A stretch of 64,000 bases of DNA. It comes from Leeuwenhoekiella sp. MAR_2009_132. Its GTDB lineage: Bacteria > Bacteroidota > Bacteroidia > Flavobacteriales > Flavobacteriaceae. The DNA lies in the NCBI RefSeq assembly GCF_000687915.1, contig NZ_JHZY01000004.1, positions 69,501 through 133,500 on the forward strand. The letters run 5' to 3'. The stretch's first letter is position 1; every line of letters begins with the position of its first letter. The notes beneath the pieces were generated by a model. The model did no database searches. It was not told the DNA's origin and was given only the letters and a program-made list of their open reading frames with translations. Shown piece by piece: positions 1,396 to 48,192 of the stretch. The position numbers and the translations under genes were made by a program.

Positions 1396-1741
1396 TATTC
1401 TTTGCTAATAATTCGTGAATTCTGTTTACTATCCATCCCAACAAATAAGCCTCTGGTTCGTCATTGTATCGGCAAAGTTCGTGGCCTATGTCTATAAATA
1501 TTGAGTTTACTAAATGCTTTGCTTCGTGCGCTATAATACCGGGAGTTGGAAAACCTTTACGGCTAATATTAAGCGCTAAGTAGGTATCTCCATTAGAAGT
1601 AAAAACGCATCCGTCATAATCATTCAAAGATCTATTGTGACTAAAACCCTTGATATTATCGTAAATCTCTTTCTCTTCTTTGAAAAGAATTACAGTGAAC
1701 TGATTGCCATACAAAGGCGTTTTAAACTTCTTACTTACCAT
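1385..1741 (-). CDS. Small zinc-metallopeptidase-like phage protein (118 aa)
   Basis: The sequence GIIAHEAKHLVNSIF (about residues 68-82) is an HExxH motif. It is followed after 15-20 residues by DEPEAYLLGW, whose Glu could be the third zinc ligand. This is the pattern of small phage and plasmid metallopeptidases. It lies directly after the portal gene, where head maturation proteins often sit, but the size is small for a true prohead protease. Stop and start overlap with neighbours. Confidence 0.6.
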   Translation of the reverse strand: MVSKKFKTPLYGNQFTVILFKEEKEIYDNIKGFSHNRSLNDYDGCVFTSNGDTYLALNISRKGFPTPGIIAHEAKHLVNSIFIDIGHELCRYNDEPEAYLLGWIVNRIHELLAKNNEK

Positions 1742-3081: not shown

Positions 3082-3084
3082 AAT

Positions 3085-21227: not shown

Positions 21228-21271
21228 TTCATAACCCGGAGGTCGGGGGATCGTGCCCCCCTCTCGCTACT
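21228..21271 (+). repeat. Left attachment site (tRNA-Met 3' half)
   Basis: It begins TTCATAACCCGGAGGTCGGG: the anticodon CAT, the 3' side of the anticodon stem, a variable loop and a T arm ending CTCTCGCTAC. No matching 5' half (expected GTAGCGAG...) lies upstream, so this is a fragment, not a gene. It is identical over 44 bases to 48,149-48,192. Confidence 0.85.
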
Positions 21272-24488: not shown

Positions 24489-24785
24489 ATGAAACGAGCA
24501 CTTATCAAATTTAGATGCAGCGTTTATGAGAAAAAATTGCTGCAGGTAAAAGCTAAAGCTGCAGGTTCTTCTTTAAGTGCCTTTTGCAGAAACAGCTTAA
24601 TGGAACAACAGATCACCGAGCGGATGAATGAAGAGCATATCAATACCTATAAAATGCTGGTGACGTATCACAACAATTTTAAACGGATTGGAAACATGTA
24701 TAAAAAAGGAAATCCAAAGCTCAGTGAAGAAGTCATTTTAGTGGCTGAAGAAATTAAGAAACATTTAAAATCCATACTCAAATGA
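24489..24785 (+). CDS. mobC: Mobilisation accessory protein MobC
   Basis: 98 residues from the ATG at 24,489 (MKRALIKFRCSVYEKKLLQV). It shows the ribbon-helix-helix pattern with AGSSLSAFCRNSLM and a C-terminal helical part YHNNFKRIGNMYKKGNPKLS, typical for MobC proteins that bind oriT and help the relaxase. The stop overlaps the relaxase start (ATGA). oriT is expected upstream but was not located. Confidence 0.78.
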   Translation: MKRALIKFRCSVYEKKLLQVKAKAAGSSLSAFCRNSLMEQQITERMNEEHINTYKMLVTYHNNFKRIGNMYKKGNPKLSEEVILVAEEIKKHLKSILK

Positions 24786-25606
24786 TTGGCAAAGGAAGTT
24801 CCATATCCCGTACTCTTGGAGCTTTGCGATATGGCAATAATCAAGAGAAAGAAGCTGAGCAAGTTTATAGCGACCTAATCACTGGAGAAACTGCAGAAGA
24901 AATCAGTCAGGAATTTAAAGCAGTGCAAGCGCTCAATCAAAATTGTGAGCGCAATACTTTGAGTTTTATTCTAAGCCCAACGGTGACCGATGGAGCTCAA
25001 ATGAATACTGAGGATTTAGGCAAACTCACTAAAACCTTTATTGAACACATGAAATTGCAAGACCGACAGGCAGTGGCTTATGTACATCGAGATAAAGCGC
25101 ATACACACGTGCATCTTTACGTCAATCGTATTGATCTAAAGGGGAAAGCGTATAACGACAGTTTTATTGGAAAGCAGAGTCAATTGGCTGCTGAGCGAAC
25201 TGCAAAGCAAATGGGTATTCAAACCGTGCAGGACGTACAGCTTGAAAAAAATAAAGCGCTCGCACATACGCGAGGTGAAATCCATAAGGCACATCAGCAA
25301 GCCATTCAAGACCCCTCTAAAGATCTTCAGACTTACATCAATCGAATGCAAAAGCAGCAAATTACTGTAGTTCCGGTGATCAATAAATCCAAACAGCTGC
25401 AGGGTTTTCGCTTTGAATACAAAGGTCAAAATATAAAAGGAAGTGAAGTACATCGCTCGATGTCGGCTAGTAATTTACTCAAATCCATCAACCGTGCAAA
25501 AAGTGTTGTTCTATCTGGAGGGAGCATTCCTATTGCACCGAGCTTGGCCAAAGCTGTGGCTAAGAAAGCCCTAAAAATTGTAATCGATAAAGGAATTGGA
25601 ATATGA
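24782..25606 (+). CDS. mobA: Relaxase (MobA-type mobilisation nuclease)
   Basis: 274 residues. The metal-binding motif VHRDKAHTHVHLYVNRID (about 100-117) is the three-histidine signature of relaxases, and SRTLGALRYGNNQEKEAEQV at the N-terminus holds the candidate catalytic tyrosine. The C-terminus is helical. It nicks oriT to start transfer by a helper conjugation system. It overlaps mobC and the next gene by four bases each. Confidence 0.85.
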   Translation: MIGKGSSISRTLGALRYGNNQEKEAEQVYSDLITGETAEEISQEFKAVQALNQNCERNTLSFILSPTVTDGAQMNTEDLGKLTKTFIEHMKLQDRQAVAYVHRDKAHTHVHLYVNRIDLKGKAYNDSFIGKQSQLAAERTAKQMGIQTVQDVQLEKNKALAHTRGEIHKAHQQAIQDPSKDLQTYINRMQKQQITVVPVINKSKQLQGFRFEYKGQNIKGSEVHRSMSASNLLKSINRAKSVVLSGGSIPIAPSLAKAVAKKALKIVIDKGIGI

Positions 25607-26580: not shown

Positions 26581-29500
26581 ATGAAAAACAAATTACTCCA
26601 TTTTTTCGAATTGCATGCCCTTGTGCCTAAATTTTTGGTCACTATTACTTTATTACTCTACTCCTCAAACTACCTTAATGCAGCTAGTACACCTTTAAAT
26701 CTAAGCACCGAACAGCAAAAACTTACAGGAACGGTTCTTGACAATACAGGAATGCCTTTGCCAGGCGCTTCTATTATGGAAGTAAATACGACAAATGGAG
26801 CCTCCTCTGATTTTGATGGTAATTTTGAGCTTAATGTATCTCAATTACCTGCGATTATTAAAATATCATATATAGGCTTTACAACTCAGGAAATCACAAT
26901 TGAATCTTTAGCGCCAATCCAAGTTCAATTACAAACAGATAATAATGCGCTTGATGAAGTGGTTGTAGTTGGTTACGGAGAAACCAGCCGTGAAAAACTT
27001 TCTACAGCAGTTAGTACGGTCAACACTGAAAATCTAGAACAACGTCCCGTTGCGGATGTCACATCAAGTCTTCAAGGTCTGAGTCCTGGACTTAATGTCA
27101 CTCAAAATACCGGTAAAATAGGTGCAGAACCTCGTATTAACATTAGAGGTTTCACCTCTATTAACGGGGGAACACCGCTGATCCTTATTGATGGTATAGA
27201 AGGAAGCTTGAGTAACCTCAATCCAAATGATGTACAATCAATCAGTGTTTTAAAAGATGCCGGAGCGGCAGCGATCTATGGAGCCCGAGGTTCCTTTGGT
27301 GTTGTCTTAGTAACCACTAAAAACGCTGATAAAGGAAATGTACAAGTAAACCTGGGAGTGACCACAGCGATCAACTCTCCTACAATGAATACCGATTTTC
27401 TTACAGACCCTTTTAAAGCGGTTTCAATTGTAGACGAAGCTTTTAGAAATAACAGTGGAGCGTCTTATACCGGTTATACTGAAGAAGATATGCAGGCTCT
27501 TTATGAAGTTTCACAAGATCCTTCCCTAGCACGTGTAATTATTGACCAGCGTAACGGTCGAGATCAATATGTGCACTACGGACATACAGATTGGTGGAAT
27601 ACCTTTTTTAGAAAGACCTATCCGACACAAATTTATAACGCTTCCGTTTCCGGGGGTTCTGAAAAAATAAAAGCCTATTTCTCCTATCGTAATTTTCAAT
27701 CTAAAGGAATTCTCAAAGTTCAAGACGACAGTTACGATAAATACAATTTACGTGGCAAAGTAGATATTCAAGCAACAGACTGGTTATCGTTTTCAAACAA
27801 TATGCAGTATAACAGTTCTGAAGACTTGGAGCATAGTGGAAGTCAATATGGAAACTACAGCAATCTTTGGGGTAGTTTAATATGGGTACACGCACTCCCA
27901 TCTTATGTCCCTGTTAATCCGGACGGAGGTGCTTTATGGCGTACCGAACTGAATAATTACACAATTGGTGATGGTGTTTATGCCGGATTACTACAAGGCA
28001 CTACAAAACAACAAACCAATAATAATGAGTTTAGTAATATAGCTTCGGTTGAACTGAAGCCTGTAAATGGAGTGACCCTGAATGGTAACTATGCGATAAG
28101 ACGTAATGAGTATAGTAGATTTCAACGTTCCACCCGTATCCCCTATTCCATCTATCCCGAGCAATTGGATCTCATGGGTAATGATTACCTTAATGAATAT
28201 CGTACCGAAAGTAAGTATGACGCATTGAACATCTACGGAGAATATAAAGGCTATTTCGCAGATCATACCCTCAAAGCTACTATTGGTTTTAACCAAGAAA
28301 CTTTTATCACTAAAAGTATCAATGCCAGTAAACAGAACTTGATTTCTAATGACCTGAATTCCTTAGGCCTTGCAACTTCAAACCCTACTGCCTCCGGTAG
28401 CGCTTCAGAATGGGCGCTTCAAGGTTTATTTTACAGATTATCGTATGATTATAAAGATAAATACGTAGCTGAGTTTAATGGTAGGTATGATGCAACTTCT
28501 CGGTTTCCATCTGCATATCGCTGGGGCTTTTTCCCTTCATTTTCCGGTGCGTGGCTCGTTAATAAAGAGCAATTCTTTGAGGATGCTACCGGTGAAACCT
28601 TTGACCTCTTAAAATTCCGTGCCTCATATGGTTCATTAGGAAATCAAAATATTAGTAATTATGCCTATTTCCCGACTTTACCTAATGGCTTGTATGACTA
28701 TGTACTCAATGGAAGTCGTTTAAATTATATAGAATCCCCAGCCTTAAACCCTACTGAGATCACTTGGGAAAAAGTAAGCACGCTTGATTTTGGAGTTGAT
28801 GTAGGTTTATTAAACAATCACTTATCTGCTTCTTTCGACTGGTTTCAAAGAGATACCGAAGGTATGCTTTCGCCAGGGGCTACACTACCAGGTGTGTTAG
28901 GAACTGCTTCTCCCTTAGAAAATGCCGCAGATTTAAGAACTAAAGGTTTTGAATTGTCTGTGAGTTATAACGACTATTTTGAACTCGCTGAAGATACATT
29001 CAATTGGTCTGTTACCGCGAACCTCTCCAACTCTAAAACTAAAATAACCGACTTTGATAATCCAAACCGGAGTCTAGTAGACTTTTATGAAGGTATGACC
29101 ATTGGTGAACTTTGGGGATATCGTATCGATGGTCTTTTTCAAACTGAAGAAGAGATTGCCAATCACGCGGATCAAAGTTTTGTTTCAAATAGAATCACAT
29201 CCGGAGGCGGATTAAAGCCAGGCGACGTAAAATATCGAGACCTTGATGGTGATGGCTATATAGGAGAAGGTGAAAATACGGTGGACAACCCCGGGGATCG
29301 TGAAATCATCGGAAATTCTGCACCGCAATATTTATACAGCTTTTTAGCAAATGCGAATTGGAAAGGTTTTGATTTTTCGGTGTTCTTTCAAGGCGTAGGT
29401 AAACAAGACTGGTATCCGAATTCAGACTCTCGTATGTTCTGGGGTCCCTACAACAGACCCTATAATTCTTTTATTAGAAAAGATATGGTAGACGATATGT

Positions 29501-29862
29501 GGACCCCAGAAAACACTGACGCGTATTATCCTCGAAATTACGGATATATCGCCTTGGGTGGTTCTTTAGAAAAAGTAAATGATCGCTATCTGCAAAGCGT
29601 AGCCTACCTGAGGCTTAAAAATTTAACCTTAGGCTATACGCTTCCTGACGGTATTATATCGAAAACCTCAGCAACAAAATTGCGTATCTACTTCAGTGGT
29701 GAAAATCTACTGACCTTTTCTAAGTTGACCGATTATATCGATCCAGAAGCAGCAAGTGCTTCTGTTAATTTAAACAGTCCATCTACCTCTGCAAATCGCG
29801 GAACCGCACAAACCAACCCATTTTCAGAAACCTATTCTTTAGGCTTATCTCTTAAATTTTAA
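26581..29862 (+). CDS. susC: SusC/RagA-type TonB-dependent outer membrane transporter
   Basis: 1093 residues from the ATG at 26,581. A signal segment (FLVTITLLLYSSNYLNA) is followed by a carboxypeptidase-regulatory-like domain (KLTGTVLDNTGMPLPGASIM, about 45-120), the TonB box/plug region (LDEVVVVGYGETSREKLSTA, INIRGFTSINGGTPLILIDG, about 125-255) and a 22-strand barrel ending SLGLSLKF. There is no extra N-terminal STN signalling domain, so the classical anti-sigma relay is not expected. It imports a ligand captured by SusD. It is the first gene of the operon susC-susD-EEP-EEP. Confidence 0.95.
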   Translation: MKNKLLHFFELHALVPKFLVTITLLLYSSNYLNAASTPLNLSTEQQKLTGTVLDNTGMPLPGASIMEVNTTNGASSDFDGNFELNVSQLPAIIKISYIGFTTQEITIESLAPIQVQLQTDNNALDEVVVVGYGETSREKLSTAVSTVNTENLEQRPVADVTSSLQGLSPGLNVTQNTGKIGAEPRINIRGFTSINGGTPLILIDGIEGSLSNLNPNDVQSISVLKDAGAAAIYGARGSFGVVLVTTKNADKGNVQVNLGVTTAINSPTMNTDFLTDPFKAVSIVDEAFRNNSGASYTGYTEEDMQALYEVSQDPSLARVIIDQRNGRDQYVHYGHTDWWNTFFRKTYPTQIYNASVSGGSEKIKAYFSYRNFQSKGILKVQDDSYDKYNLRGKVDIQATDWLSFSNNMQYNSSEDLEHSGSQYGNYSNLWGSLIWVHALPSYVPVNPDGGALWRTELNNYTIGDGVYAGLLQGTTKQQTNNNEFSNIASVELKPVNGVTLNGNYAIRRNEYSRFQRSTRIPYSIYPEQLDLMGNDYLNEYRTESKYDALNIYGEYKGYFADHTLKATIGFNQETFITKSINASKQNLISNDLNSLGLATSNPTASGSASEWALQGLFYRLSYDYKDKYVAEFNGRYDATSRFPSAYRWGFFPSFSGAWLVNKEQFFEDATGETFDLLKFRASYGSLGNQNISNYAYFPTLPNGLYDYVLNGSRLNYIESPALNPTEITWEKVSTLDFGVDVGLLNNHLSASFDWFQRDTEGMLSPGATLPGVLGTASPLENAADLRTKGFELSVSYNDYFELAEDTFNWSVTANLSNSKTKITDFDNPNRSLVDFYEGMTIGELWGYRIDGLFQTEEEIANHADQSFVSNRITSGGGLKPGDVKYRDLDGDGYIGEGENTVDNPGDREIIGNSAPQYLYSFLANANWKGFDFSVFFQGVGKQDWYPNSDSRMFWGPYNRPYNSFIRKDMVDDMWTPENTDAYYPRNYGYIALGGSLEKVNDRYLQSVAYLRLKNLTLGYTLPDGIISKTSATKLRIYFSGENLLTFSKLTDYIDPEAASASVNLNSPSTSANRGTAQTNPFSETYSLGLSLKF

Positions 29863-29873
29863 AAAACATCCAT

Positions 29874-31613
29874 ATGAAAGTTAAACATATACTTGCCGGT
29901 TTGCTTGTTGCAACCAGCATCAGTTCGTGCAGTGATGATTTTTTAGACAAGCAACCGCTATCTGAAATTACTGCAGAAACCTTTTTCAATACCGCTAGTG
30001 ACCTTCAACTGTATACCAACGGGTTTTACCGGATGTGGCCAAGCACTTCGATTTATAACGGAGAAGCTAGTACCGACAATATTATACAAACGGAACTGAG
30101 TGAAGAAATGAGAGGCGCACGGCTCGTACCTACAACCGGAGGCGGTTGGAATTGGGAATATTTGCGGGATATTAATTTTTTCCTGCAAGAATATGAGAAG
30201 TCTGATGATGAAGCAGCAAAAGCCCATTACGGAGGTGTGGCTCGCTTTTTTAGAGCGCGGTTTTATTTTGATAAGTTTCAGCGCTTTGGTGCTTTACCTT
30301 GGTATGATGCTCCTATAGATCCAGACGATACAGAAGCGCTTACCAAACCTAGAGATTCAAGACAGTATGTTGTTGATAAAATGCTCGAAGATCTGGACTG
30401 GGCTATTGAAAACCTCAATGAAGAGCAAAATACTTATGAGGTTACCAAATACACGGCCTTGGCGTTAAAATCAAGGATTGGGCTTTATGAGGGTACTTAC
30501 GAAAAATACAGAGGGATTGAAGGTTATGAAAAATACCTCCAAGCTTCTGTTGCGGCATCAACAGCATTGATTGAGGATTCTCCTTATCAGATTTACAGTA
30601 CGGGTAATCCGGAACAGGATTATCTAGAGCTTTTTAATTCGCATGATGCTAATGAAACCGAAGTGATCTTAGCACGCGCCTATTCTGAAGATTTGAATAT
30701 TGGTCATAATGTAAACTACTATACCACGACAAGTTCTTATGGTCGTCCAGGTATGCCGAAAGATCTTGTCAATAGCTATCTGAATGCTGATGGAACACGA
30801 TTTACAGATGCAGTTGGATATAATCAACTATCCTTTACGGAAGAAATACAAAATCGAGATCCTCGTTTGGCACAGACGATTCGCACTCCCGGATATACGC
30901 GTAAAGGGCAAAGTATTGAACTAGCTCCTAATCTTGGCGCTACCGTAACTGGTTATCAAATTATAAAGTACGTGACCGAGCCTGTGTATGACACCAATGG
31001 TCAGTCTATTACTGATCTTTCGATTTATCGTTTTGGAGAAGTGCTTCTAAATTATGCAGAAGCCAAAGCCGAATTAGGAACACTATCACAAGAAGATTTA
31101 AACAGCTCCATCAATTCCTTAAGACAACGTGTAGGGATGCCTGATTTAATTATAGATACTGCGAACGCGGCACCCGATTCATTTATGGCTGCTCAGTATC
31201 CTGGTGTGACTGGTGCAAATGCTGGTGTAATTTTAGAAATAAGACGGGAGCGCCGTATTGAATTGTATATGGAAAACTTCAGGTGGGATGATGTGGTTCG
31301 CTGGAAAGCAGGTCAAACGCTAACCCAACCTATTCGAGGCCTTTATTTTTCCGGAGCCGGTGAGTATGACCTTACCGGAGACGGCAGTATCAATGTAGTG
31401 CTGTATGAAGGGGAACGTCCCTCAAATCCAGTTAGTGGTGTTCAATATTATAAATTGGGCTCAGATTTTACCTTAGATGCCAATGGCTTAATTGATCCAC
31501 ATCCTGATTTCAATGACAGAAGCTTTGATGAAAATAAAGATTATCTATATCCGATACCCCGTATAGAACTGCAACTCAACCCTAATCTTGAACAAAATCC
31601 TGGTTGGAAGTAA
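29874..31613 (+). CDS. susD: SusD/RagB-type nutrient-binding lipoprotein
   Basis: 579 residues. Lipoprotein signal MKVKHILAGLLVATSISSCS with acylated Cys. Family features: SDDFLDKQPLSEITAETFF after the signal, TPR-like helices, RFGEVLLNYAEAKAELG (about 380-396), EIRRERRIELYMENFRWDDV (about 455-475) and a C-terminal YLYPIPRIELQLNPNLEQNPGW. It caps the SusC barrel outside the cell and binds the substrate. It starts 11 bases after susC. Confidence 0.95.
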   Translation: MKVKHILAGLLVATSISSCSDDFLDKQPLSEITAETFFNTASDLQLYTNGFYRMWPSTSIYNGEASTDNIIQTELSEEMRGARLVPTTGGGWNWEYLRDINFFLQEYEKSDDEAAKAHYGGVARFFRARFYFDKFQRFGALPWYDAPIDPDDTEALTKPRDSRQYVVDKMLEDLDWAIENLNEEQNTYEVTKYTALALKSRIGLYEGTYEKYRGIEGYEKYLQASVAASTALIEDSPYQIYSTGNPEQDYLELFNSHDANETEVILARAYSEDLNIGHNVNYYTTTSSYGRPGMPKDLVNSYLNADGTRFTDAVGYNQLSFTEEIQNRDPRLAQTIRTPGYTRKGQSIELAPNLGATVTGYQIIKYVTEPVYDTNGQSITDLSIYRFGEVLLNYAEAKAELGTLSQEDLNSSINSLRQRVGMPDLIIDTANAAPDSFMAAQYPGVTGANAGVILEIRRERRIELYMENFRWDDVVRWKAGQTLTQPIRGLYFSGAGEYDLTGDGSINVVLYEGERPSNPVSGVQYYKLGSDFTLDANGLIDPHPDFNDRSFDENKDYLYPIPRIELQLNPNLEQNPGWK

Positions 31614-32470
31614 TGAAAAAAATAAGCTTTATGGTATTTGCACTGCTGGTTATCAGCAGTGCATTTGCTCAGGAAGAAAAAAAAGAACTCCTTATATGCT
31701 CCTTTAATGTGCGATACAACAGTGCTGATGATGGAATTAACATTTGGGAAAATCGTAAAGATTGGCTTACCCACAGCATTCGGTTTTATCAAACAGACCT
31801 GATCGGTACTCAAGAAGTCACACATACTCAACTTTTGGATATGCAAGAGCTGCTTCCTAATTATACCTATGTAGGTATAGGTCGCGAAGGGCATACCCAA
31901 GGAGAATACTCCGCGATTTTCTATAAAAAAGATCGTTTTGAAGTGGTGGATAGTAATACTTTTTGGCTTTCGGAAACTCCAGAAGTAGTCGCTTCCAAAG
32001 GTTGGGATGCAGCCTTACCCCGTATTGTAACTTGGGCATTATTTAAGGATAAAAACTCTGGGATTACATTTTATCATTTCAATACGCATTTTGATCACCG
32101 GGGTAAACAAGCACGAATTGAAAGTGCGGCCTTACTTGCTGAAAAAATAAATGAAATTGCCGGTGCATCAGCAGTTTTACTAACTGGTGATTTAAACAGT
32201 TCACCAAATAGTGAAGTTATTGATACACTATTGAAAAATGGATTGAAGGATCCGTATCTTAATCTGGATTCGGACAAGGTATATGGTCCTGAATATAGCG
32301 CTAATGGATGGGATGCAGCAGGCAGAACCGCAGATAGTAGAATAGATTACGTATTTTACAAAGGAGCGGTGCAACCTTCAACTTTACAAATTTTAGATGG
32401 TCAACGCGGACAACGTTATATATCAGATCATTTTCCCGTAATTGCTAAAGTTGAACTTTCAGATAATTAG
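31613..32470 (+). CDS. Secreted endonuclease/exonuclease/phosphatase (EEP) family protein 1
   Basis: 285 residues from the ATG at 31,613, which overlaps the susD stop (TAATG). Signal peptide KKISFMVFALLVISSAFAQ. All EEP motifs are present: LLICSFNVRYN (Asn), LIGTQEV (Glu), FNTHFDHRG (His), LLTGDLNSSPN (Asp, Asn), and YISDHFPVIAKVEL (Ser-Asp-His). The fold hydrolyses phosphodiesters or phosphomonoesters. Its place in a Sus operon suggests processing of a phosphate-containing nutrient in the periplasm or at the surface; the substrate is not known. Confidence 0.88.
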   Translation: MKKISFMVFALLVISSAFAQEEKKELLICSFNVRYNSADDGINIWENRKDWLTHSIRFYQTDLIGTQEVTHTQLLDMQELLPNYTYVGIGREGHTQGEYSAIFYKKDRFEVVDSNTFWLSETPEVVASKGWDAALPRIVTWALFKDKNSGITFYHFNTHFDHRGKQARIESAALLAEKINEIAGASAVLLTGDLNSSPNSEVIDTLLKNGLKDPYLNLDSDKVYGPEYSANGWDAAGRTADSRIDYVFYKGAVQPSTLQILDGQRGQRYISDHFPVIAKVELSDN

Positions 32471-32482
32471 TAGCTTAACATT

Positions 32483-33322
32483 ATGAACGAATACAAAGCC
32501 GTGAATCAAAAATTGACAAAAGGTATTATCTTGATTATAATCCTTTTTTTATCAAGTAATCCTATGCTCTCACAAAAAGCGTTAACCGTTAATTTCGAGA
32601 ATGCTTCACATGAGCTGAAGGTTTTAAGCTATAATATTCATCACGCGAATCCGCCTATGCACAAGGATCGTATAGATCTGTCAGCTATCATTCAAGTAAT
32701 CAAAGATAGAAATGCAGATCTGGTTGCCTTACAGGAAATAGACTCCAATACCGATCGTTCAGGTTTAGGAAACCAAGCCCAGCAGATTGGTGACGCATTA
32801 GGTATGCAAGTATTTTTTGGTAAGGCTATAGATTTTCAAAACGGAGCCTATGGCGTTGCAATTCTTTCTCGATTTCCTATTATAGAATCTAAGGTCTATA
32901 AACTCCCCTCAAATTCTGAAACCCAAGGAGAACCTCGAGTTTTAGCCATGTCTATGATACAGTTATCCGATGCTCATTCCATCTGGTTTGCAAGTACACA
33001 TTTAGATTCTCAAAAGGAGGATACCAACCGGATCTTACAAATAGAAGAACTCTTAAATATCACGAAGGATATAAATCTACCTGTACTGGTAGCAGGAGAT
33101 TTTAATGCTGTCGCAAACAGTCCGGTAATTGATTCTTTGGATAACCTATTTACAAGAAGCTGTACATCATGCCCACCTACAATACCGGTACAAAACCCCA
33201 CTAAGGCTATTGATTTTATAGCTTTTAAACCGCAGTCTTTTTTCAAGATAAAAAGCCATGACGTCATTGATGAAAAACATGCTTCAGATCATCTACCTGT
33301 GTTAGCTACTTTTCAATGGTAG
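32483..33322 (+). CDS. Secreted EEP family protein 2
   Basis: 279 residues with an uncleaved or cleaved N-terminal hydrophobic segment (GIILIIILFLSSNPMLSQ). Motifs: LKVLSYNIHHANP, LVALQEID, FASTHLDSQ, VAGDFNAVANS and KHASDHLPVLATF. It differs clearly from protein 1 in the substrate region, for example SCTSCPPTIPVQNPT near residue 230. Two different EEP enzymes in one operon point to a substrate with two kinds of phosphoester, such as a glycerophosphodiester or nucleic acid derivative; this is inference. Confidence 0.88.
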   Translation: MNEYKAVNQKLTKGIILIIILFLSSNPMLSQKALTVNFENASHELKVLSYNIHHANPPMHKDRIDLSAIIQVIKDRNADLVALQEIDSNTDRSGLGNQAQQIGDALGMQVFFGKAIDFQNGAYGVAILSRFPIIESKVYKLPSNSETQGEPRVLAMSMIQLSDAHSIWFASTHLDSQKEDTNRILQIEELLNITKDINLPVLVAGDFNAVANSPVIDSLDNLFTRSCTSCPPTIPVQNPTKAIDFIAFKPQSFFKIKSHDVIDEKHASDHLPVLATFQW

Positions 33323-33351
33323 TTTGTAATAACTTAAGCTTTAAAGTTCGC

Positions 33352-33422
33352 TCACGCCCGTTGTATATGCCCTGTGACATATAGTGAGCGTAAACCTCAC
33401 CCTACGGGTATACAAGTACCCT
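33352..33422 (-). ncRNA. Guide-RNA-like repeat, copy 1 (most distal from dCas12f)
   Basis: Minus-strand order of stems: GGGTA/TACCC, GTGAG/CTCAC, then an ATG/CAT stem that here extends to six pairs (TATATG/CATATA). The first and third stems differ from the other copies in both arms, i.e. compensating changes that keep pairing. The 3' end reads ATACAAC on the minus strand. Variable sequence following it on the minus strand (33,330-33,351) begins GCGAACTTTAAAGCTTAAGT. Confidence 0.72.
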
Positions 33423-33519
33423 CGACCCTATTAAGGATTATTTTATTGTTCATTCAGAGTGTCGTTTATTGTTCTTTCATCAGCTTGGCTTTGTTTCTTG
33501 AGTTGATTAATAAGCAAGC

Positions 33520-33590
33520 TCACGCATTGTATGTACTCCGTCGCACTTAGTGAGTATCTGTAATCTCACTTTACGGGTGTACAAGCACCC
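33520..33590 (-). ncRNA. Guide-RNA-like repeat, copy 2
   Basis: Same three-stem layout: GGGTG/CACCC, GTGAG/CTCAC and GTGC/GTAC. The last stem contains a G-U pair only if read on the minus strand (on the plus strand it is A-C), which favours minus-strand transcription, the same direction as the dCas12f gene. The following variable sequence on the minus strand begins GCTTGCTTATTAATCAACTC. Confidence 0.75.
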
Positions 33591-33669
33591 TCTTTTTAGT
33601 TTAGACTTTTGAGTTAGGAGTTCAGCGTTTTTTATTTTTTAGATCGCCATTTGTCTTAAAAGTCAGATG

Positions 33670-33740
33670 TCACGCGTTGTATGTGCCCCAGAGCACTTGG
33701 TGAGTATCGATGATCTCACTTTATGGGTGTACAAGCACCC
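33670..33740 (-). ncRNA. Guide-RNA-like repeat, copy 3
   Basis: Stems GGGTG/CACCC, GTGAG/CTCAC and GTGC/GCAC with 3' end CACATACAACGCG on the minus strand. The following variable sequence begins CATCTGACTTTTAAGACAAA. A short box AAACTAA lies about 8 bases before the first stem, as in copies 2 and 4. Confidence 0.77.
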
Positions 33741-33815
33741 CCTCAATTAGTTTAAAATTCCAAATTATTAAATTCAAAGTCCATTTTTACCGCCTAGTAT
33801 TAATATACGATGAGC

Positions 33816-33885
33816 TCGCGCGTTGTATGTGCCCGTTGCACTTAGTGAGTAGCTATGATCTCACCTTATGGGTGTACAAGCACCC
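33816..33885 (-). ncRNA. Guide-RNA-like repeat, copy 4 (adjacent to dCas12f stop)
   Basis: Its 5' end on the minus strand starts 17 bases after the dCas12f stop codon, the position where TnpB/Cas12f-type guide RNAs begin. Stems GGGTG/CACCC, GTGAG/CTCAC and GTGC/GCAC, then ACATACAACGCGCGA. Ending in AUACAAC resembles the AUGCAAC end of known Cas12f crRNA repeats. The following variable sequence begins GCTCATCGTATATTAATACT and differs from the other copies. Confidence 0.78.
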
Positions 33886-33902
33886 GCTTATTCAGTTCAA
33901 AT

Positions 33903-35000
33903 TTATCCTACGACCAATTCAATCCCAGCCTTTTCCGCTTTGTATTTGATTTTCGTCATGAGTTCGTAATAATTCCAGTTTCTAAGTACAAAATCGTTTT
34001 CCTGTGCGGCTTCTATTTTAGCTTCCTGATTCAGCAGTATCAAGGTACCGGCTTGATGCTTGACGCAAAAATCTATGAGTTTACGACTATACACGTGCAG
34101 GCGCTGATTGACGTAATTGGTTTCCTTTTTCTTAAACTTTTCAACGGCTTTAAGCTTGCGCTTGCGCCCGTGGCCACCCCGGGAATGTACCGATCCGGCT
34201 ATCGCCCGTTTACGGGCGGCCTGTATCGCCAGTCTCCGGTATAAAAACTCTTCTTTCGTTCCAATAGTCATTCGATTACTACCAACCTTGACGGTAATGG
34301 GATATTCTAATGATAAAGAAGCCTCGGCAACCAAATTGGGCTTTAAGGCGTGTTGTTCCTGCTCGATATCAAAGACTGCCAGCCAGAAGATCTTGCCGTC
34401 TTTTAATTTGATCTGAGAGGTGCGTAAGCGCGTTTCCCCTTTAAGTACCCGGTGCAACAATACGCGCTTATCGGAGAAGTCCCTGCCCAAATAGGTGCAA
34501 AAGGGAATTTTAAACAGCCGAAAGCAAAAACACTTACGCTCTTCATCATATTTAAAGCAACACATACTATAAGGACCAAAGGGAAATCCATTATCTCTTT
34601 TAAAATTTTGAAGAGAACGCTCCCCGCTCCAGTACTCCGGTGCATTCTTTTTAAATGTACTTTCTAAATTCCGGTTTAAACTCGATAAGATTTCGGTTGG
34701 GATTTTACCCTTAAACCGATCTGAGATCACGCGATAGGTGGTGTTGATACGCGAACGGTTCAGAATGCCGTTTTCGTCTTTCTTTTGATCTGCTAGTTTA
34801 TACTGAATGTCCTCGGTCAAGTAAAAGAATTCCTTGATCATTTCCTGCACATAGAGGTGCGAGACGATGATATTGGAAGCCTTAAAACAACAGTATTGCC
34901 AGTCGTAAAGTTTGGCCATAGCCGCTTTACGCTCCTCATAATTGGGCAGGTCTATGTTGAGTTGAATCTTGCGGGTAAGGCTGAGGGTTTTGGTTTTCAT
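33903..35000 (-). CDS. Nuclease-dead Cas12f/TnpB-like RNA-guided DNA-binding protein
   Basis: 365 residues from the ATG at 35,000; the frame runs further up inside the sigma gene but TAAGATG places this start one base after the sigma stop. N-terminal recognition/wedge part (residues 1-215) has FWLAVFDIE before the RuvC fold. RuvC-I, usually D-L-G-I-x-Y-P-I, reads ASLSLEYPITVKVG (227-240): Asp is replaced by Ser. The bridge region FLYRRLAIQAARKRA and GGHGRKRKLKAVEKF (252-289) is kept. RuvC-II, usually V-L-E-D-L, reads LILLNQEAK (320-328): Glu lost. The protein ends at KYKAEKAGIELVVG, exactly before the zinc ribbon and RuvC-III Asp. It should bind guide RNA and DNA but not cut. Known family parallel: dCas12f proteins linked to sigma factors. 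Confidence 0.88.
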   Translation of the reverse strand: MKTKTLSLTRKIQLNIDLPNYEERKAAMAKLYDWQYCCFKASNIIVSHLYVQEMIKEFFYLTEDIQYKLADQKKDENGILNRSRINTTYRVISDRFKGKIPTEILSSLNRNLESTFKKNAPEYWSGERSLQNFKRDNGFPFGPYSMCCFKYDEERKCFCFRLFKIPFCTYLGRDFSDKRVLLHRVLKGETRLRTSQIKLKDGKIFWLAVFDIEQEQHALKPNLVAEASLSLEYPITVKVGSNRMTIGTKEEFLYRRLAIQAARKRAIAGSVHSRGGHGRKRKLKAVEKFKKKETNYVNQRLHVYSRKLIDFCVKHQAGTLILLNQEAKIEAAQENDFVLRNWNYYELMTKIKYKAEKAGIELVVG

Positions 35001-35001
35001 C

Positions 35002-35793
35002 TTAAGCGGATTGTAAGTGTTCGTGCTGTTGTAACAGCTTATAAGCCGTCGTAAAGGCGCGGTGTACTTCCTTTTGAGTGAGTTGGAGTTCGGCTGCGAT
35101 CTGAGCAAAGGAATACTGCTGTTCGCAGCGCAAGGTCAATACCCGGGTTTCCTGCTCGGTCAGCTCCTGGGGTGGATTGGAAGCTTCTGAAACCGAACTT
35201 TCCTCATCCACCAGACACTCCTGCTGCAGGATGTTTTTGAGCTGCTGTATAGCATTTTTCATCAGGTTGCTGGCTTCCTTAATACTGATACCCATGTGCT
35301 CCGCAATGGTTTTGTATTTAAAGCCGTGCTGCATACCCAGTTCAATAAGGCGTTTGGACTGCGTTCCGAGCAAGGGCAATATAGCGACTACCTGCTCGTA
35401 TTCTTTTTGGCTGCTTTGCTGATCTTCCATATGCGTATCGACTGCTTCAGGATCATAGCCCCACCTATAGTCCTGATAATTGGGAATTGTATCATAGGAG
35501 TAGATACTGCGTTGAAACTGATTCCCCGGTCTTACGTAAAACCACTTGCATTCGTTGGAAATGACCGCATAGAGGAAATTGACCAAATGCTGAGGCGACT
35601 CGATATCGTCGCGTTTGTACCAGAGCCTTAAAAAGGCGTCCTGTACGAGTGTTTCTACCACGAACACATCTTTGATCAACGTCCTACCCATCCAGTAGAT
35701 GGGGCGGTAATAGTGTTTGTATAGGCCATTAAATGCCAGACTGCAGCCCGATTTAAAGGACTCAAAATGTATTTCACTGGGATAATGCTTCAT
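35002..35793 (-). CDS. ECF sigma factor with extra C-terminal HTH
   Basis: 263 residues, longer than the usual 160-200 of ECF sigma factors. Sigma-2 region at about 15-85 (FNGLYKHYYRPIYWMGRTLI, VETLVQDAFLRLWYKRDDIE). A linker with WGYDPEAVDTHMEDQQ precedes sigma-4 at about 132-190 (LPLLGTQSKRLIELGMQHGF, YKTIAEHMGISIKEASNLMK). A second sigma-4/LuxR-like HTH follows at about 210-257 (LTEQETRVLTLRCEQQYSFA, QIAAELQLTQKEVHRAFTTA). No anti-sigma (FecR) gene adjoins. It is translationally coupled to the dead Cas12f gene, so the two proteins are expected to act together in RNA-guided promoter recognition. Confidence 0.87.
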   Translation of the reverse strand: MKHYPSEIHFESFKSGCSLAFNGLYKHYYRPIYWMGRTLIKDVFVVETLVQDAFLRLWYKRDDIESPQHLVNFLYAVISNECKWFYVRPGNQFQRSIYSYDTIPNYQDYRWGYDPEAVDTHMEDQQSSQKEYEQVVAILPLLGTQSKRLIELGMQHGFKYKTIAEHMGISIKEASNLMKNAIQQLKNILQQECLVDEESSVSEASNPPQELTEQETRVLTLRCEQQYSFAQIAAELQLTQKEVHRAFTTAYKLLQQHEHLQSA

Positions 35794-35825: not shown

Positions 35826-36182
35826 TTTAAATTAAGGGTGTACTGATCTTAAGCAGGTGTATGATTATACCAGCCCAAGAGCACATTTTGAAATTAGGGT
35901 ATAGTTGCGAGGCTTCGCTAAGGAAGAAACAAAGCTTGAATGTTGAGATGTGCTTAGAAAAAGAAAAAGGCGCAGGTCTCAACTTATCGAACAGAGGTAC
36001 TGGTATACCGTGCAACAATAAGCGAGAGCCCACGCCCGGGTCGTGAGCATCCCTGCTTATCCTCTCGTTGCTAAAAATTACCAGTTTTCTGTTCGAGATT
36101 CAAAGCGAATGCTTCTAATATTTTACTTAAAGAAGTTTCGCAAATATATAATTATGAGTCAAATATAGTAAAATAATCTTTA
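35826..36182. other. Structured intergenic region upstream of the sigma operon
   Basis: No gene is supported here. It contains several self-complementary parts: GCGAGAG (36,023) with CTCTCGT (36,061), CACG-CCCGGGT-CGTG (36,031), and the palindrome GGTATACC (36,003). It is the 5' side of the sigma-dCas12f operon, and a longer leader RNA or another small RNA could be encoded. Similarity to the guide-RNA-like repeats was looked for and not found. Confidence 0.35.
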
Positions 36183-36202
36183 TCTCGTTCGATCGAACGA
36201 GA
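36183..36202. promoter_or_regulatory. Perfect 20-bp palindrome, likely operator
   Basis: TCTCGTTCGATCGAACGAGA is perfectly self-complementary and lies 33 bases before the ATG of the HTH-like gene at 36,235. Such a site is a candidate autoregulatory operator of that protein. Confidence 0.55.
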
Positions 36203-36234: not shown

Positions 36235-36498
36235 ATGGATAAGGATATTAATTCAGCTATATGTGAGTTTATAACAAAAGAATGGATAGATCCCTTTCTT
36301 TCCAAAGGTGGAACTCAAGTTGAATTTGCAGATCATCACAATATCTTAGAAAGTACTGTTCGCAAAATAAAAAGCAAGTCTAATTATCGTATCCCAGTAG
36401 AAACGTTATTCAAAATTTGTAAAGAAAAACGTTTAGATATCTCAGATTTCTTCAAAGCGGTAGAAAAAATGTTTCCCAATCTAAAAAGTCATAATTAA
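36235..36498 (+). CDS. Small XRE-like helix-turn-helix protein (87 aa)
   Basis: The middle reads GGTQVEFADHHNILESTVRK followed by IKSKSNYRIPVETLFKICKE and KRLDISDFFKAVEK. This matches small Bacteroidota XRE-type regulators, with a loop between helices and the L-D-I-S-D-F-F signature near the end. It is transcribed away from the sigma operon across a region with a perfect palindrome. It may be a regulator of the element. Confidence 0.62.
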   Translation: MDKDINSAICEFITKEWIDPFLSKGGTQVEFADHHNILESTVRKIKSKSNYRIPVETLFKICKEKRLDISDFFKAVEKMFPNLKSHN

Positions 36499-42020: not shown

Positions 42021-43346
42021 ATGATAATAGAATTTAGTGTAGAAAATTTCTTGTCTTTTAAAGATCTGACTACTCTCTCAATGGTAAAAGCCAAATCATT
42101 TAAAGAACATAACGAAACACATACTTTTCAAATAGATTCTAAATTAAGTTTACTTAAATCTGCAATTATTTATGGAAATAATGCTAGTGGAAAAAGTAAC
42201 TTATTGGAAGCTATGGGATTTATGAAAGGAACAGTAATAAATTCTTTTCGTGATGCACTTATGGACAATAATGAAAGAAAATTTCCATTAGAAAAATTTA
42301 TTTTAAGTTCTAAAAGCGAAAATGAATCCAGTTATTTCGAAATAGTATTTATTAATAACAATGTAAAATATAGATATGGATTTGAAATAGACGACAATAA
42401 AATTATTGCTGAATGGCTGTTTCATACAACTTCAAAAGAGGTTTATCTTTTTAAAAGAGATTTACAAGATATTAAAATAAACAAATCATCCTTTGAAGAA
42501 GCGTTAGGTAAAGAGACAGATGTAAAGGAAAATGTTTTATTTCTTTCGCTGTTAGCTACTTTAGGAAAAGAAACTTCATCTAGTATAGTTGAATGGTTTA
42601 AGAAATTTAATTTTGTTAATGGTATTCACGACAGAGGACATAAAAGGTATACAATAGATAAATTAAAATCGGACAAAAACTTTTTTAATTGGGTTCTTCA
42701 CTTCATCAAATATCTAGAAATTTCAAGTTTATCAACAACTGAAGAAGATGTAAACGATATAGATTTGGAAGTTCTAAAGCAAAAAGAAAAGGACGAAGAA
42801 ATAATAAATCTTTTAACTAGCATCCACAAAATACAATCTAAACAACCAAAGAGAGATCAACTTATTACTTATCATAGAAAATATGATGAAAACAATATTT
42901 TAGTTGATACTGTTCCGTTCAATTTTGATAAACAAGAATCAGAAGGAACAAAAAAACTATTGTATTTATTAGGACCTTGGTTCGATACATTACAAAATGG
43001 CAAAGTGCTTTTAGTTGATGAACTAGATTCAAGACTTCACAGCCATTTGACTTTGAGATTAATTGACTTTTTTCACAAGTTCAACACAAATCACGCTCAA
43101 TTAATATGTGCTGTTCACGACATTTCACTTTTAAATAAAGAAACCTTTAGAAGAGACCAAATATGGTTTGTGGAGAAAAATCAATTTGGTGCATCTGAAT
43201 TAGTTTCTTTAGGAGATTTTAAAACAGATAAAGTCCGTAATAAGTCTGCATTTGACAAAAATTACCTAGACGGCAAATATGGTGCTATCCCTTACTTTGA
43301 CATTGATGAAAAATTAAATCAATTGCTTTATGGGAAAGGGAAATAA
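42021..43346 (+). CDS. AAA ATPase (AbiLi/RloA-like), putative abortive infection protein
   Basis: 441 residues. It starts MIIEFSVENFLSFKDLTTLS; Walker A IIYGNNASGKSNLLEAMGFM near residue 50; ABC-like signature region ESEGTKKLLYLLGPW near 305; Walker B GKVLLVDELDSRLHSHLT near 330; switch His in LICAVHDISLL near 365. This is the AAA_15/21 layout of RloA/AbiLi-type defence ATPases. The next gene overlaps it by 17 bases and encodes the probable partner. Confidence 0.78.
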   Translation: MIIEFSVENFLSFKDLTTLSMVKAKSFKEHNETHTFQIDSKLSLLKSAIIYGNNASGKSNLLEAMGFMKGTVINSFRDALMDNNERKFPLEKFILSSKSENESSYFEIVFINNNVKYRYGFEIDDNKIIAEWLFHTTSKEVYLFKRDLQDIKINKSSFEEALGKETDVKENVLFLSLLATLGKETSSSIVEWFKKFNFVNGIHDRGHKRYTIDKLKSDKNFFNWVLHFIKYLEISSLSTTEEDVNDIDLEVLKQKEKDEEIINLLTSIHKIQSKQPKRDQLITYHRKYDENNILVDTVPFNFDKQESEGTKKLLYLLGPWFDTLQNGKVLLVDELDSRLHSHLTLRLIDFFHKFNTNHAQLICAVHDISLLNKETFRRDQIWFVEKNQFGASELVSLGDFKTDKVRNKSAFDKNYLDGKYGAIPYFDIDEKLNQLLYGKGK

Positions 43347-43770
43347 ATTCAAATCAAGAAGTAAAGCTTCATTAAATAGGAAATCAAAAACACTAGAAAC
43401 GAGAGACAATAAGAGGGAAACTTTTATTGTTTTAAGTTTTAGAGATTTCGACATTAATCAAGGTCAAGACTTTGAAGAATGGGAAGAAGCAAAACTTCTC
43501 GCTTTAATGATAAATAAATTGAGAGCTATCTGCCAAATCACGATGGCTCAAGCAACTGCTCAACAAATTATTAAACCATATACAAAAGTAGATTTTCCGC
43601 CAGAATCTGCTTTCACACATCCAAAGCACGTTCTACCCGACGTAACTTGGTGTACAATGCATATTCAAGGTAAGGAGTGTATAATTGGACATATTGAGGA
43701 TAATATATTTCATATTGTGTTTTTAGATAAAGAACACGAATTTTGGAAAACGAAAAAAAAGAATACGTAG
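43330..43770 (+). CDS. Partner protein of the AAA ATPase, not RloB-like (146 aa)
   Basis: It begins MGKGNKFKSRSKASLNRKSK, then RETFIVLSFRDFDINQGQDF and a C-terminal DVTWCTMHIQGKECIIGHIE followed by NIFHIVFLDKEHEFW. The usual RloB toprim motif is absent, so a different effector is joined to the RloA-type ATPase. The end (strands, then H-x-V-F-L-D-x-x-H-x-F-W) recalls RelE-like toxins in outline, but no clear family is assigned. Confidence 0.55.
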   Translation: MGKGNKFKSRSKASLNRKSKTLETRDNKRETFIVLSFRDFDINQGQDFEEWEEAKLLALMINKLRAICQITMAQATAQQIIKPYTKVDFPPESAFTHPKHVLPDVTWCTMHIQGKECIIGHIEDNIFHIVFLDKEHEFWKTKKKNT

Positions 43771-46784: not shown

Positions 46785-47987
46785 TCAAAAATTCACAACA
46801 TTATCTAATGCATCATCTACATCATCTTGCATAAAATTAGACTGATACATAATTGTTGTAGTCACTGATGAATGCCGGTATAATTTCTGCAACATTTGAA
46901 TGGGGATTTTACTTCCAGAAATGTTACCGAAACTGTGACGAGCGATATGCATACTCAGACTTTTAGAAATTCCTAGATGCTCGGCAATCTTTTTTAAATG
47001 ACGATTGAAGGTGCGGGTGACCGTTTTAATTCGTGTACGGAGAATTTTAGCATCTTTAGGATCTACAAAACGTAACTCCTGAAATAAAAAATCATCCTCA
47101 GCCAAACCTTTATAATATTCTAGTATAGGTTTTGCCTTCTCAGGGATTTTCAGAGATACTAACTTTTGGTTTTTTCCCATACGGTAGCGTAACCTATTAT
47201 CTATAAAATCAGACCACTTCAATTGCAATACATCCCCTACTCGTATTCCGGCGAAGTAAAAACTGATTAACCATATATTCAATGCGTGTTGTTGGGATGA
47301 AGTTAAGTCTTTAGCGTTTTCTAAAAGTTTCACTTCTTCAACGTTGAGACCTATTTTATCTGACTCAAGGAATTTAATGGTATATCCACCTCTCCCAAAT
47401 GGATAATGATTGCGTTCTGCCCACTTCTCCCCTATTGCAATATTATAAATGGTTCTTATGGCAATCATATAGTTTACTGTAGTGCGATGTGCTAAACCAA
47501 TCTCATTTTTCAGATAGGCTTCAAAACGTTTTAAAAGGTCTACAGTTATTTCATTGAAATGTAATTTGTCTGATTTAGCAAAAGCTTTAAACTTTTCCAT
47601 TCTACTTTTTACCACATCTCGTTGATGAAACTGCCCCCGCTCTTCAAGCCGTCGCAACTGAATCTTTACCGCACTAAAAAAATCAAACCGATCCTTTTTC
47701 ACAATATTGGTTTTAATAGTTGAGACAGATTGGTATTCTTTCTCGGACTCTGCATTTAAGAGCCGCTTATTTGCTTCACTCAACTTTGATAGAATAAGCT
47801 GGTTAATGTAAATCGCATCAGGATGTGACTTCCTTACTAAACCCTTTTTGGCGTTCCATTGCATTTTATCTATATATTGACCTATAAAAATGAAAGAAGT
47901 TTTTCTGTCTTTTGTAATTCTGATGGCGATTGGGTACAACAATCTAGCATTTGGTTTGTTTCTAAGTACTGTTTGAATAGAAGCCAT
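46785..47987 (-). CDS. int: Tyrosine integrase of the element
   Basis: 400 residues. N-terminal arm-DNA-binding part (ARLLYPIAIRITKDRKTSFI), core-binding SAM-like domain at about 110-205, catalytic domain with Arg in FAGIRVGDVLQLKWSDF, Lys in MGKNQKLVSLKIPEK, HIARHSF (His-x-x-Arg), and LYRHSSVTTTIMYQSNF with the active Tyr. It is the standard Bacteroidota element integrase. It lies 160 bases from the right att site and uses tRNA-Met as target. Confidence 0.92.
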   Translation of the reverse strand: MASIQTVLRNKPNARLLYPIAIRITKDRKTSFIFIGQYIDKMQWNAKKGLVRKSHPDAIYINQLILSKLSEANKRLLNAESEKEYQSVSTIKTNIVKKDRFDFFSAVKIQLRRLEERGQFHQRDVVKSRMEKFKAFAKSDKLHFNEITVDLLKRFEAYLKNEIGLAHRTTVNYMIAIRTIYNIAIGEKWAERNHYPFGRGGYTIKFLESDKIGLNVEEVKLLENAKDLTSSQQHALNIWLISFYFAGIRVGDVLQLKWSDFIDNRLRYRMGKNQKLVSLKIPEKAKPILEYYKGLAEDDFLFQELRFVDPKDAKILRTRIKTVTRTFNRHLKKIAEHLGISKSLSMHIARHSFGNISGSKIPIQMLQKLYRHSSVTTTIMYQSNFMQDDVDDALDNVVNF

Positions 47988-48148: not shown

Positions 48149-48192
48149 TTCATAACCCGGAGGTCGGGGGATCGTGCCCCCCTCTCGCTACT
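48149..48192 (+). repeat. Right attachment site (tRNA-Met 3' half)
   Basis: Identical over 44 bases to the left site. Again no 5' half of the tRNA precedes it. Further, shorter tRNA 3' fragments lie at about 48,529-48,555 and 48,891-48,917 in the tandem repeats downstream. Confidence 0.85.

What the first reader, a model, noticed from the sequence alone, without database searches (positions are those of the whole stretch)
33340..35793. Sigma factor plus nuclease-dead Cas12f plus repeat RNAs: a likely RNA-guided transcription activator
Seen: an ECF sigma gene and a Cas12f/TnpB-like gene are coupled as TAAGATG; the latter lost RuvC-I Asp (SLSLEYPI), RuvC-II Glu (LILLNQE) and everything after GIELVVG; four three-hairpin repeats follow directly. 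Known: a class of dCas12f proteins linked to sigma factors in Bacteroidota has recently been reported, as I recall, to direct RNA polymerase by guide RNA to susCD genes. Inference: this locus is such a system, carried by a mobilizable element together with a susCD operon.
Basis: partly seen in the sequence, partly recalled or inferred. Interest (0 to 1): 0.97.

Follow-up and report, generated by a model that had tools for sequence, protein, structure and literature searches.

The report
RNA-guided sigma factor with guide array
A likely mobile element in a flavobacterium carries a Cas12f relative that lacks key cutting residues, a co-encoded sigma factor and four tandem guide-RNA units; both proteins resemble those of a solved RNA-guided transcription complex, and guides of this family match structured leader regions in front of nutrient-uptake (susCD) genes, where they likely start transcription.

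Summary
In detail: on the minus strand an ECF sigma gene (35793-35002) and a Cas12f-like gene (35000-33903) are coupled as TAAGATG and followed by four three-hairpin RNA units. New here is what guides of this family point at. A structured leader RNA without an Rfam match (98.0% of cells paired, 416 compensatory cells against 106 shuffled) precedes the window's sigma gene and many susC genes; 12 of 12 sampled family genomes with dCas12f have it, 55 of 299 in all. In nine further genomes 8 of 15 guides match their own genome's leader at 14 or more of 16 nt, all in sense and after a G; shuffles give none. Other guides match a second hairpin before susC. I infer initiation inside the leader, past its terminator-forming half. 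Some arrays grew by tandem duplication. Weak point: the window's own guides do not match its leaders; guide 3 has a 10-nt seed at both leader-bearing susC genes.

The parts
35002..35793 (-). ECF sigma factor, 263 aa, region 2 plus two region-4-like HTH stretches
33903..35000 (-). dCas12f, 365 aa, predicted nuclease-dead
33822..33885 (-). guide-RNA unit 1 scaffold; guide g1 follows (33821 downwards)
   Evidence: 86.3 bits
33676..33740 (-). guide-RNA unit 2 scaffold; guide g2 follows (33675 downwards)
   Evidence: 81.3 bits
33526..33590 (-). guide-RNA unit 3 scaffold; guide g3 follows (33525 downwards); its 10-nt seed matches two chromosomal susC hairpins
   Evidence: (79.9 bits)
33360..33421 (-). 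guide-RNA unit 4 scaffold; guide g4 follows (33359 downwards)
   Evidence: 68.2 bits
26127..26191 (-). fifth, orphan guide-RNA unit, between relaxase gene and susC; guide g5 follows (26126 downwards)
   Evidence: 59.7 bits
35963..36120 (-). structured leader RNA of the sigma-dCas12f operon
   Evidence: R1 model 192.7 bits (this copy is one of the 11 training sequences); fold energy z -3.4 for 35958-36148; covariation in other copies
36016..36036 (-). leader arm: G at 36036, then GCGTGGGCTCTCGCTTATTG, the place that guides of relatives match in their own leaders
35964..35980 (-). terminator-like 3' strand with T-run that can pair with the leader arm (fold 2)
36139..36148 (-). TATATTTGCG, promoter-like (Bacteroidota -7 box TAnnTTTG)
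   Evidence: sequence; the consensus is named in PMC9723704 (passage)
36183..36202 (.). 20-bp palindrome TCTCGTTCGATCGAACGAGA upstream of the leader
36235..36498 (+). divergent small HTH (Cro/C1-like) gene
   Evidence: Pfam HTH_26 E 0.0031, below cut-off
26581..29862 (+). susC on the same element
   Evidence: TIGR04056 over cut-off
29874..31613 (+). susD on the same element
21228..21271 (.). 44-bp direct repeat, left end of the element
48149..48192 (.). 44-bp direct repeat, right end of the element
46785..47987 (-). tyrosine integrase
   Evidence: Pfam
24782..25606 (+). relaxase
   Evidence: Pfam Relaxase E 9.4e-27

Best explanation
This is an RNA-guided transcription system in which a predicted nuclease-dead Cas12f and a co-encoded ECF sigma factor would be carried by small guide RNAs to structured leader regions in front of susCD operons and would start transcription there without an ordinary promoter. 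Shown: both proteins are homologues of the solved RNA-guided transcription complex; the guide units share a three-hairpin scaffold that ends in ATACAAC or a close variant; guides of this family match, in the sense strand, one arm (GCGTGGGCTCTCTTAT and variants) of a conserved structured leader RNA that lies before susC genes and before many sigma-dCas12f operons; a second guide type (GCCTTCCC) matches a hairpin about 80 nt before the susC start codon. Inferred: the R-loop covers the DNA of the leader arm that can form the 5' half of a terminator, so RNA made from any start downstream of the R-loop lacks that half and reads through into susCD (or into sigma-dCas12f, a positive loop). In the window the array has four diverged guides plus an orphan; guide 3, and with 12 nt a guide of a second system elsewhere in the genome, point at chromosomal susCD-peptidase operons.
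For: Homology. Sigma directly upstream of dCas12f in 18 of 20 loci, the other two being dCas12f remnants. Scaffold covariation; 92 units in 13 of 13 genomes. Leader: 36 in 12 of 13 genomes, 15 before sigma-dCas12f, 16 before susC, 5 neither; in the family 55 of 299 genomes, including 12 of 12 with dCas12f (Fisher p 5e-10; without the three genomes that gave training copies 9 of 9, p 9e-8). Structure: 98.0% of cells paired, 416 compensatory cells against 105.8 +/- 7.0. Guide-leader match, first set: 27 pairs of 9 nt or more, all sense, null mean 1.3, max 8; 12 of 88 guides at 13/16 or better in sense, 1 antisense, null 0.15. Further set of nine genomes: 16 pairs of 9 nt or more, null 0.2, max 4; 8 of 15 guides at 14/16 or better, all preceded by G, antisense 0, null 0. 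Pre-ATG hairpin: 20 matches against 0.66, max 5. Genome-wide, G plus the 10-nt seed of guide 3 occurs three times: at the two susC genes that carry leaders, and in one coding gene. Variable parts of susC leader arms resemble guides of the set, often of sister species.
Against: In the window's own genome no guide matches any of its three leader arms by 9 nt or more; four of its seven guides have no target by this test; the 20-mer of guide 3 (3 mismatches) and the 14-mer of guide 2 (1 mismatch) find only themselves. Over 13 genomes 65 of 89 guides have no match of 9 nt or more in a leader or pre-ATG hairpin. At the looser 12/16 level antisense matches also occur (8 of 88 and 5 of 15, against 20 and 8 in sense), as expected of a hairpin but weakening that level. 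The base just before the match is G in 17 of the 27 pairs and in 8 of the 16 sense matches. Guide 3's site lies only 49 nt before the ATG, a poor place for a start some tens of bp downstream. The terminator helix shows no covariation; real variant arms pair slightly better than permuted ones (16 of 2000 permutations as good), but the common arm pairs as well or better in 25 of 26. The pre-ATG hairpin was found by a loose pattern in only 6 of 19 susC loci of the family sample. The leader also occurs in 43 of 299 genomes without a dCas12f match, so it has a function of its own. Guides and arms may be alike by descent.
Confidence: 0.77

Rival explanations
1. Guide RNAs act on RNA, not DNA: the guide, being like the leader's 3' arm, pairs with the 5' arm of the nascent leader (GCTCACG side), frees the 3' arm and shifts the leader between its two folds; dCas12f is the RNA chaperone.
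For: Guides are complementary to the 5' arm as well as equal to the 3' arm; single-sequence folding gives one fold in 5 and the other in 6 of 11 leaders.
Against: The G before the matched site in 8 of 8 good matches of the further set fits a DNA-adjacent motif; the solved relatives are a dCas12f-gRNA-DNA complex and an RNA-guided transcription complex; the co-encoded sigma would have no role.
Confidence: 0.1
2. The complex works as a repressor or roadblock (like TldR), sitting on the leader or pre-ATG hairpin and stopping transcription from the upstream vegetative-like promoter.
For: Guide 3's site is 49 nt before the ATG, and the R-loop lies inside the transcribed leader.
Against: A sigma gene is coupled to dCas12f in 18 of 20 loci and its homologue belongs to the solved transcription complex.
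Confidence: 0.12
3. The guide-leader likeness is only shared ancestry: a leader fragment was captured behind the scaffold long ago and guides now drift without function at leaders, other targets being the real ones.
For: 65 of 89 guides lack a good match; several matching guide-arm pairs lie in different species.
Against: Same-genome matches of 14-16 of 16 nt in seven of nine further genomes; two unrelated guide types converge on the same susC genes.
Confidence: 0.15
4. A decayed TnpB/Cas12f remnant with no function.
For: RuvC-I Asp and C-terminal domain missing.
Against: Open frames with 53-97% protein identity across the 16 sequences aligned, and compensatory changes in the RNA.
Confidence: 0.02

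Closest known systems
dCas12f - RpoE RNA-guided transcription complex (PDB 9n9c, 9n9m, 9n9o, 9n9q)
   Same: Both proteins homologous over nearly full length (60-61% and 38% identity in structural alignments); same gene pair
   Different: Here four tandem guide units plus an orphan; what the solved system's locus looks like was not readable here. The work behind it (recalled only: Hoffmann, Wiegand, Sternberg and colleagues, preprint 2025, with a 5'-G motif and susCD targets) was not in the library
TldR, TnpB-like nuclease-dead repressors (Wiegand 2024, as cited in PMC13418256; passages seen)
   Same: Exapted TnpB-family protein with inactivated RuvC acting with a guide RNA on transcription
   Different: TldR represses; a sigma partner is not part of it as far as the passages seen and recall go
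Cas12f1 nucleases (AsCas12f, Al3Cas12f, CnCas12f1)
   Different: RuvC-I Asp and TNB/RuvC-III end missing here; no identical-repeat array
Flavo-1 RNA (RF01705), a Flavobacteriaceae RNA motif (named in a passage of PMC9723704)
   Same: Widespread in the same family
   Different: 15 hits in the window's genome, none at a leader; no Rfam hit at E 1 on the window's leader or on six more leader loci

Membership tests
dCas12f-sigma RNA-guided transcription systems | Protein homologous to nuclease-deactivated Cas12f of 9n9c | tested here: met
dCas12f-sigma RNA-guided transcription systems | RuvC catalytic residues lost | tested here: met
   RuvC-I Asp is Ser228, RuvC-III/TNB end missing; RuvC-II Glu inconclusive
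dCas12f-sigma RNA-guided transcription systems | Co-encoded ECF sigma homologous to RpoE of 9n9q | tested here: met
   E 8.4e-62; adjacent in 18 of 20 loci
dCas12f-sigma RNA-guided transcription systems | Guide RNA with structured scaffold next to the gene | tested here: met
   four units 3' of the gene, covariation; expression not testable
dCas12f-sigma RNA-guided transcription systems | Targets preceded by G, upstream of susCD (recalled from the preprint) | tested here: inconclusive
   further set: 8 of 8 good matches after G; first set 17 of 27; the window's own guides: one 10-nt seed after G at two susC genes
dCas12f-sigma RNA-guided transcription systems | dCas12f binds sigma and recruits RNA polymerase | not testable with these tools
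   needs experiment
TldR repressors | Acts as repressor without a coupled sigma gene | tested here: not met
   sigma gene coupled; repression itself not testable
Type V-F CRISPR-Cas | Array of near-identical repeats between spacers | tested here: not met
   the units differ by many substitutions and start 145-166 nt apart; Cas1/Cas2 not searched
Flavo-1 (RF01705), for the leader RNA | Match to the Rfam model | tested here: not met
Integrative mobilizable element | Integrase, relaxase and flanking direct repeats, no own conjugation machinery | tested here: inconclusive
   integrase, relaxase and 44-bp repeats found; absence of conjugation genes and an empty site were not tested

The most novel reading that the evidence does not exclude
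RNA-guided transcription in Flavobacteriaceae runs on a guide-leader code: dCas12f-sigma is sent to the DNA of one arm of a conserved, so far uncatalogued attenuator RNA, so that new transcription starts past the terminator-forming half and the operon escapes its own attenuator; where multi-guide arrays occur, susC leaders have diversified their arms and the arrays, which grow by tandem duplication of the dCas12f 3' end, follow them, giving each nutrient-uptake operon its own RNA address and the sigma-dCas12f operon a positive loop.
Probability: 0.36. Interest if true: 0.92.

Novelty: new variant of a known kind. Interest (0 to 1): 0.8.

Why it matters
It gives dCas12f-sigma systems a predicted natural target rule that one ChIP-seq or 5'-end sequencing experiment can test: guides name an arm of a structured leader shared by SusCD uptake operons and by the regulator itself. 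It also describes a widespread structured RNA of Flavobacteriaceae with two exclusive folds, and a way in which guide arrays grow without CRISPR adaptation. If the attenuator-bypass reading is right, the guide would choose not only the gene but also the escape from its terminator.

Tried and rejected
Targets inside the window: none. Guide 3 as a 20-mer with 3 mismatches and guide 2 as a 14-mer with 1 mismatch: only the guides themselves. Guides 1, 4 and 5 and p2 were not searched over the whole genome. One search used the wrong flank for susC genes on the minus strand; one search replaces it. One search found no susC starts because one query carried an N-terminal extension; one search replaces it (in one locus, L082, it took an ATG upstream of the likely start). 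The script stopped with an error at the last of 11 leaders; that one's end was counted by hand. Pfam's Cas12f1-like TNB domain in the own genome: no match, as the domain is cut off. Autoregulation in the window's own genome: not supported (no guide matches its leader). Leader as Flavo-1 or any Rfam family: rejected. Terminator helix by covariation: not strongly supported. tRNA at the element's ends: none found by ARAGORN. Arm diversification as a general mark of dCas12f genomes: the 10 of 22 against 1 of 34 rests on the first 13 genomes (9 of 15); in the further genomes it is 1 of 7, no different from 1 of 34 (p 0.3), and leaders before other genes show no difference (2 of 9 against 7 of 32); I lowered the novel case for this. 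Literature: searches (listings) did not show the dCas12f-sigma paper or a description of the leader; the library holds no bioRxiv server set and few subscription papers, so neither is claimed to be unpublished.
Full report
WHAT IS THERE. The minus strand of the window reads: vegetative-like promoter, a structured leader, an ECF sigma gene (35793-35002), TAAGATG, a Cas12f-like gene (35000-33903), and four guide-RNA units (33885-33360) that begin 17 nt after the stop codon. A fifth unit sits alone at 26191-26127, between the relaxase gene and susC. All this lies between two 44-bp direct repeats (21228 and 48149) with an integrase near one end and a relaxase, NikA-like protein, primase and susCD inside: the cargo of a probably mobilizable element.

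THE GUIDE UNITS. 46 units were found by pattern in the window and relatives; 45 were aligned (L024's left out): three hairpins, 97.9% of cells paired, 25 compensatory cells against 6.2 +/- 1.9 in shuffles. A covariance model finds 92 units in 13 of 13 dCas12f genomes at E 0.01; weak ones, above all in G011 and G012, are doubtful. The scaffold ends ATACAAC or a close variant; what follows varies. In six arrays (L012, L013, L017, L018, L019, L123) stretches between or just behind units still encode the end of dCas12f (RNWNYYELM...IELIVD), 13 remnants in all, with two more in L124, a second copy of L013's array (19 loci scanned): these arrays grew by tandem duplication of the gene's 3' end with its guide unit. 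The window and L006-L008, L010, L011 show no such remnant.

THE LEADER. The region before the sigma gene recurs at two other places in the genome, both before susC. Eleven copies gave a model. It finds 36 leaders in 12 of 13 dCas12f genomes at E 0.01: 15 before sigma-dCas12f, 16 before susC, 5 before neither within the sequence held. In the family, 55 of 299 sampled genomes have it (E 1e-4, strict filters). All 12 genomes with dCas12f (E 1e-40) in that sample have it (Fisher p 5e-10); three of these gave training copies, and without them it is 9 of 9 (p 9e-8); relatedness is not corrected. In 88 family copies aligned to the model (one, L156, is a training copy seen again; own genome and one re-sampled relative left out, four weak places not fetched), 98.0% of cells pair, with 416 compensatory cells against 105.8 +/- 7.0 in shuffles and at most 71 in slid controls. 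Downstream of these 88: susC 41, sigma 11, neither 36; the last group includes another ECF sigma gene and varied single genes. It has no Rfam match at E 1 and is not Flavo-1. A second fold pairs the arm GGGCGTGGG with CCACGCC before a T-run. It excludes the first fold. In the 11 training copies 97.8% of its cells pair, without covariation. A T-run was found in 94 of 122 leaders (two dropped); 85 of these 94 have at least 7 of 8 pairs. Real variant arms pair slightly better than permuted ones (16 of 2000), but the common arm does as well or better in 25 of 26. I read it as an attenuator, by inference.

GUIDES MATCH THE LEADER ARM. In the first 13 genomes 27 same-genome guide-leader pairs share 9 nt or more starting in the first four guide positions; all 27 are on the leader's sense strand at the arm; shuffled guides give 1.3 on average, at most 8. 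Windows elsewhere in the 30 loci held give 1.8 (at most 6) against 20 for their leaders. These pairs are not independent, since many guides share the start GCGTG, and only 14 of 89 guides make them. I therefore took nine other genomes with dCas12f from the family sample: 15 guides within 1.5 kb of dCas12f, 19 leaders. Thirteen of the 15 guides are of the two types (10 GCGTG-, 3 GCCTTCCC-). Eight of 15, in seven of the nine genomes, match their own genome's leader at 14 or more of 16 nt, seven at 15 or more; each is sense and preceded by G; antisense and 20 rounds of shuffled guides give none at 13/16 or better. At 12/16 antisense gives 5 of 15. The best is 16 nt exact in G106, at a susC leader (L229) and at one before another gene (L166).

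A SECOND SITE. By eye, all 16 susC genes listed carry a hairpin shortly before the start codon. Guides of the second type match its 5' strand about 80-85 nt before the ATG (up to 14 nt, G006). Guide 3 of the window and its sisters match its 3' strand 45-49 nt before the ATG (10-11 nt). In all, 20 matches against 0.66 in shuffles, at most 5; 16 of the 20 are sense and the four antisense ones lie in the palindromic hairpin. In the family sample a loose pattern finds such a hairpin in 6 of 19 susC loci.

THE WINDOW'S OWN TARGETS. G plus the first 10 nt of guide 3 occurs three times in the genome: at the hairpins of the two leader-bearing susC genes, and inside one coding gene. Guide p1 of the second system (L003) matches one of the same susC genes with 12 nt. 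These operons are susC-susD-S9 peptidase (L194) and susC-susD-M16 peptidase (L195), so peptide uptake is likely. Against this: none of the genome's seven guides matches any of its three leader arms by 9 nt, four guides have no target by this test, and longer forms of guides 2 and 3 find only themselves.

DIVERSIFICATION. susC leader arms depart from [CT]GTG[AG]GCT in 10 of 22 cases in dCas12f genomes and in 1 of 34 without (p 1.5e-4; one truncated leader, L082, left out). This comes from the first 13 genomes (9 of 15); in the further genomes it is 1 of 7. Relatedness is not corrected. The eight nt after GCGTG of 18 susC or other arms resemble one of 47 anchored guides more than shuffled arms do (6.61 against 4.57 +/- 0.21; within the same genome 4.28 against 2.85 +/- 0.26; 0 of 500 each; four leaders without a readable arm dropped).

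MECHANISM. Established for the relatives by solved structure: a dCas12f-guide-DNA complex and an RNA-guided transcription complex with the sigma. Recalled, not read: initiation a fixed few tens of bp downstream of the R-loop, without promoter motifs, with a 5'-G motif. Inferred here: the R-loop sits on the leader arm, and since the arm itself is the 5' half of the terminator helix, any start downstream of it yields an RNA that cannot form the terminator. For the second guide type the start would fall some 35-40 nt before the ATG, if the recalled distance (about 46 bp) is right. Many sigma operons have the same leader, so in genomes such as G010 (18-nt match) a positive loop is expected.

VERDICT. 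A member of the known dCas12f-sigma RNA-guided transcription kind, in a form with several guides.

Noticed in passing
window 21228-21271, 48149-48192, 48530, 48890: 44-bp direct repeats bound the element; 26- and 28-nt partial copies follow at 48530 and 48890, as if further insertions had used the same site.
   Followed up: partly
window 1741-4584: SPP1-type phage portal and a terminase-like protein: a prophage region next to the element.
   Followed up: no
L003 8093-10299: Second sigma-dCas12f system in the same genome (61% identical dCas12f) with two guide units and without the leader.
   Followed up: partly
upstream of leaders, e.g. window 36183-36202: A palindrome of differing sequence lies before many leaders (half-length 8 or more in 22 of 54 loci, 10 of 295 shuffled stretches), in the window beside a divergent small HTH gene: a local repressor and operator, by inference.
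   Followed up: partly
L204 750-1001, L249 259-2229: Leaders also precede another ECF sigma gene and unrelated genes such as a subtilase; the leader's own function is open.
   Followed up: partly
window 35002-35793: The sigma has two region-4-like stretches (helices 121-198 and 213-262 in the model); one may hold dCas12f.
   Followed up: no
L006 18806-18870 and 18980-19044: L. marinoflava has two guide units away from its array, before susC, where the window has its fifth unit.
   Followed up: no
L023 10028-10288, L024 104-399: Truncated dCas12f remnants that still have a guide unit behind or near them.
   Followed up: no
window 42021-43770: AAA_21 ATPase gene followed by a small gene on the same element, possibly a defence cargo.
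   Followed up: no
window 31604-33322: Two endonuclease/exonuclease/phosphatase-fold genes follow susD and converge on the guide array.
   Followed up: no
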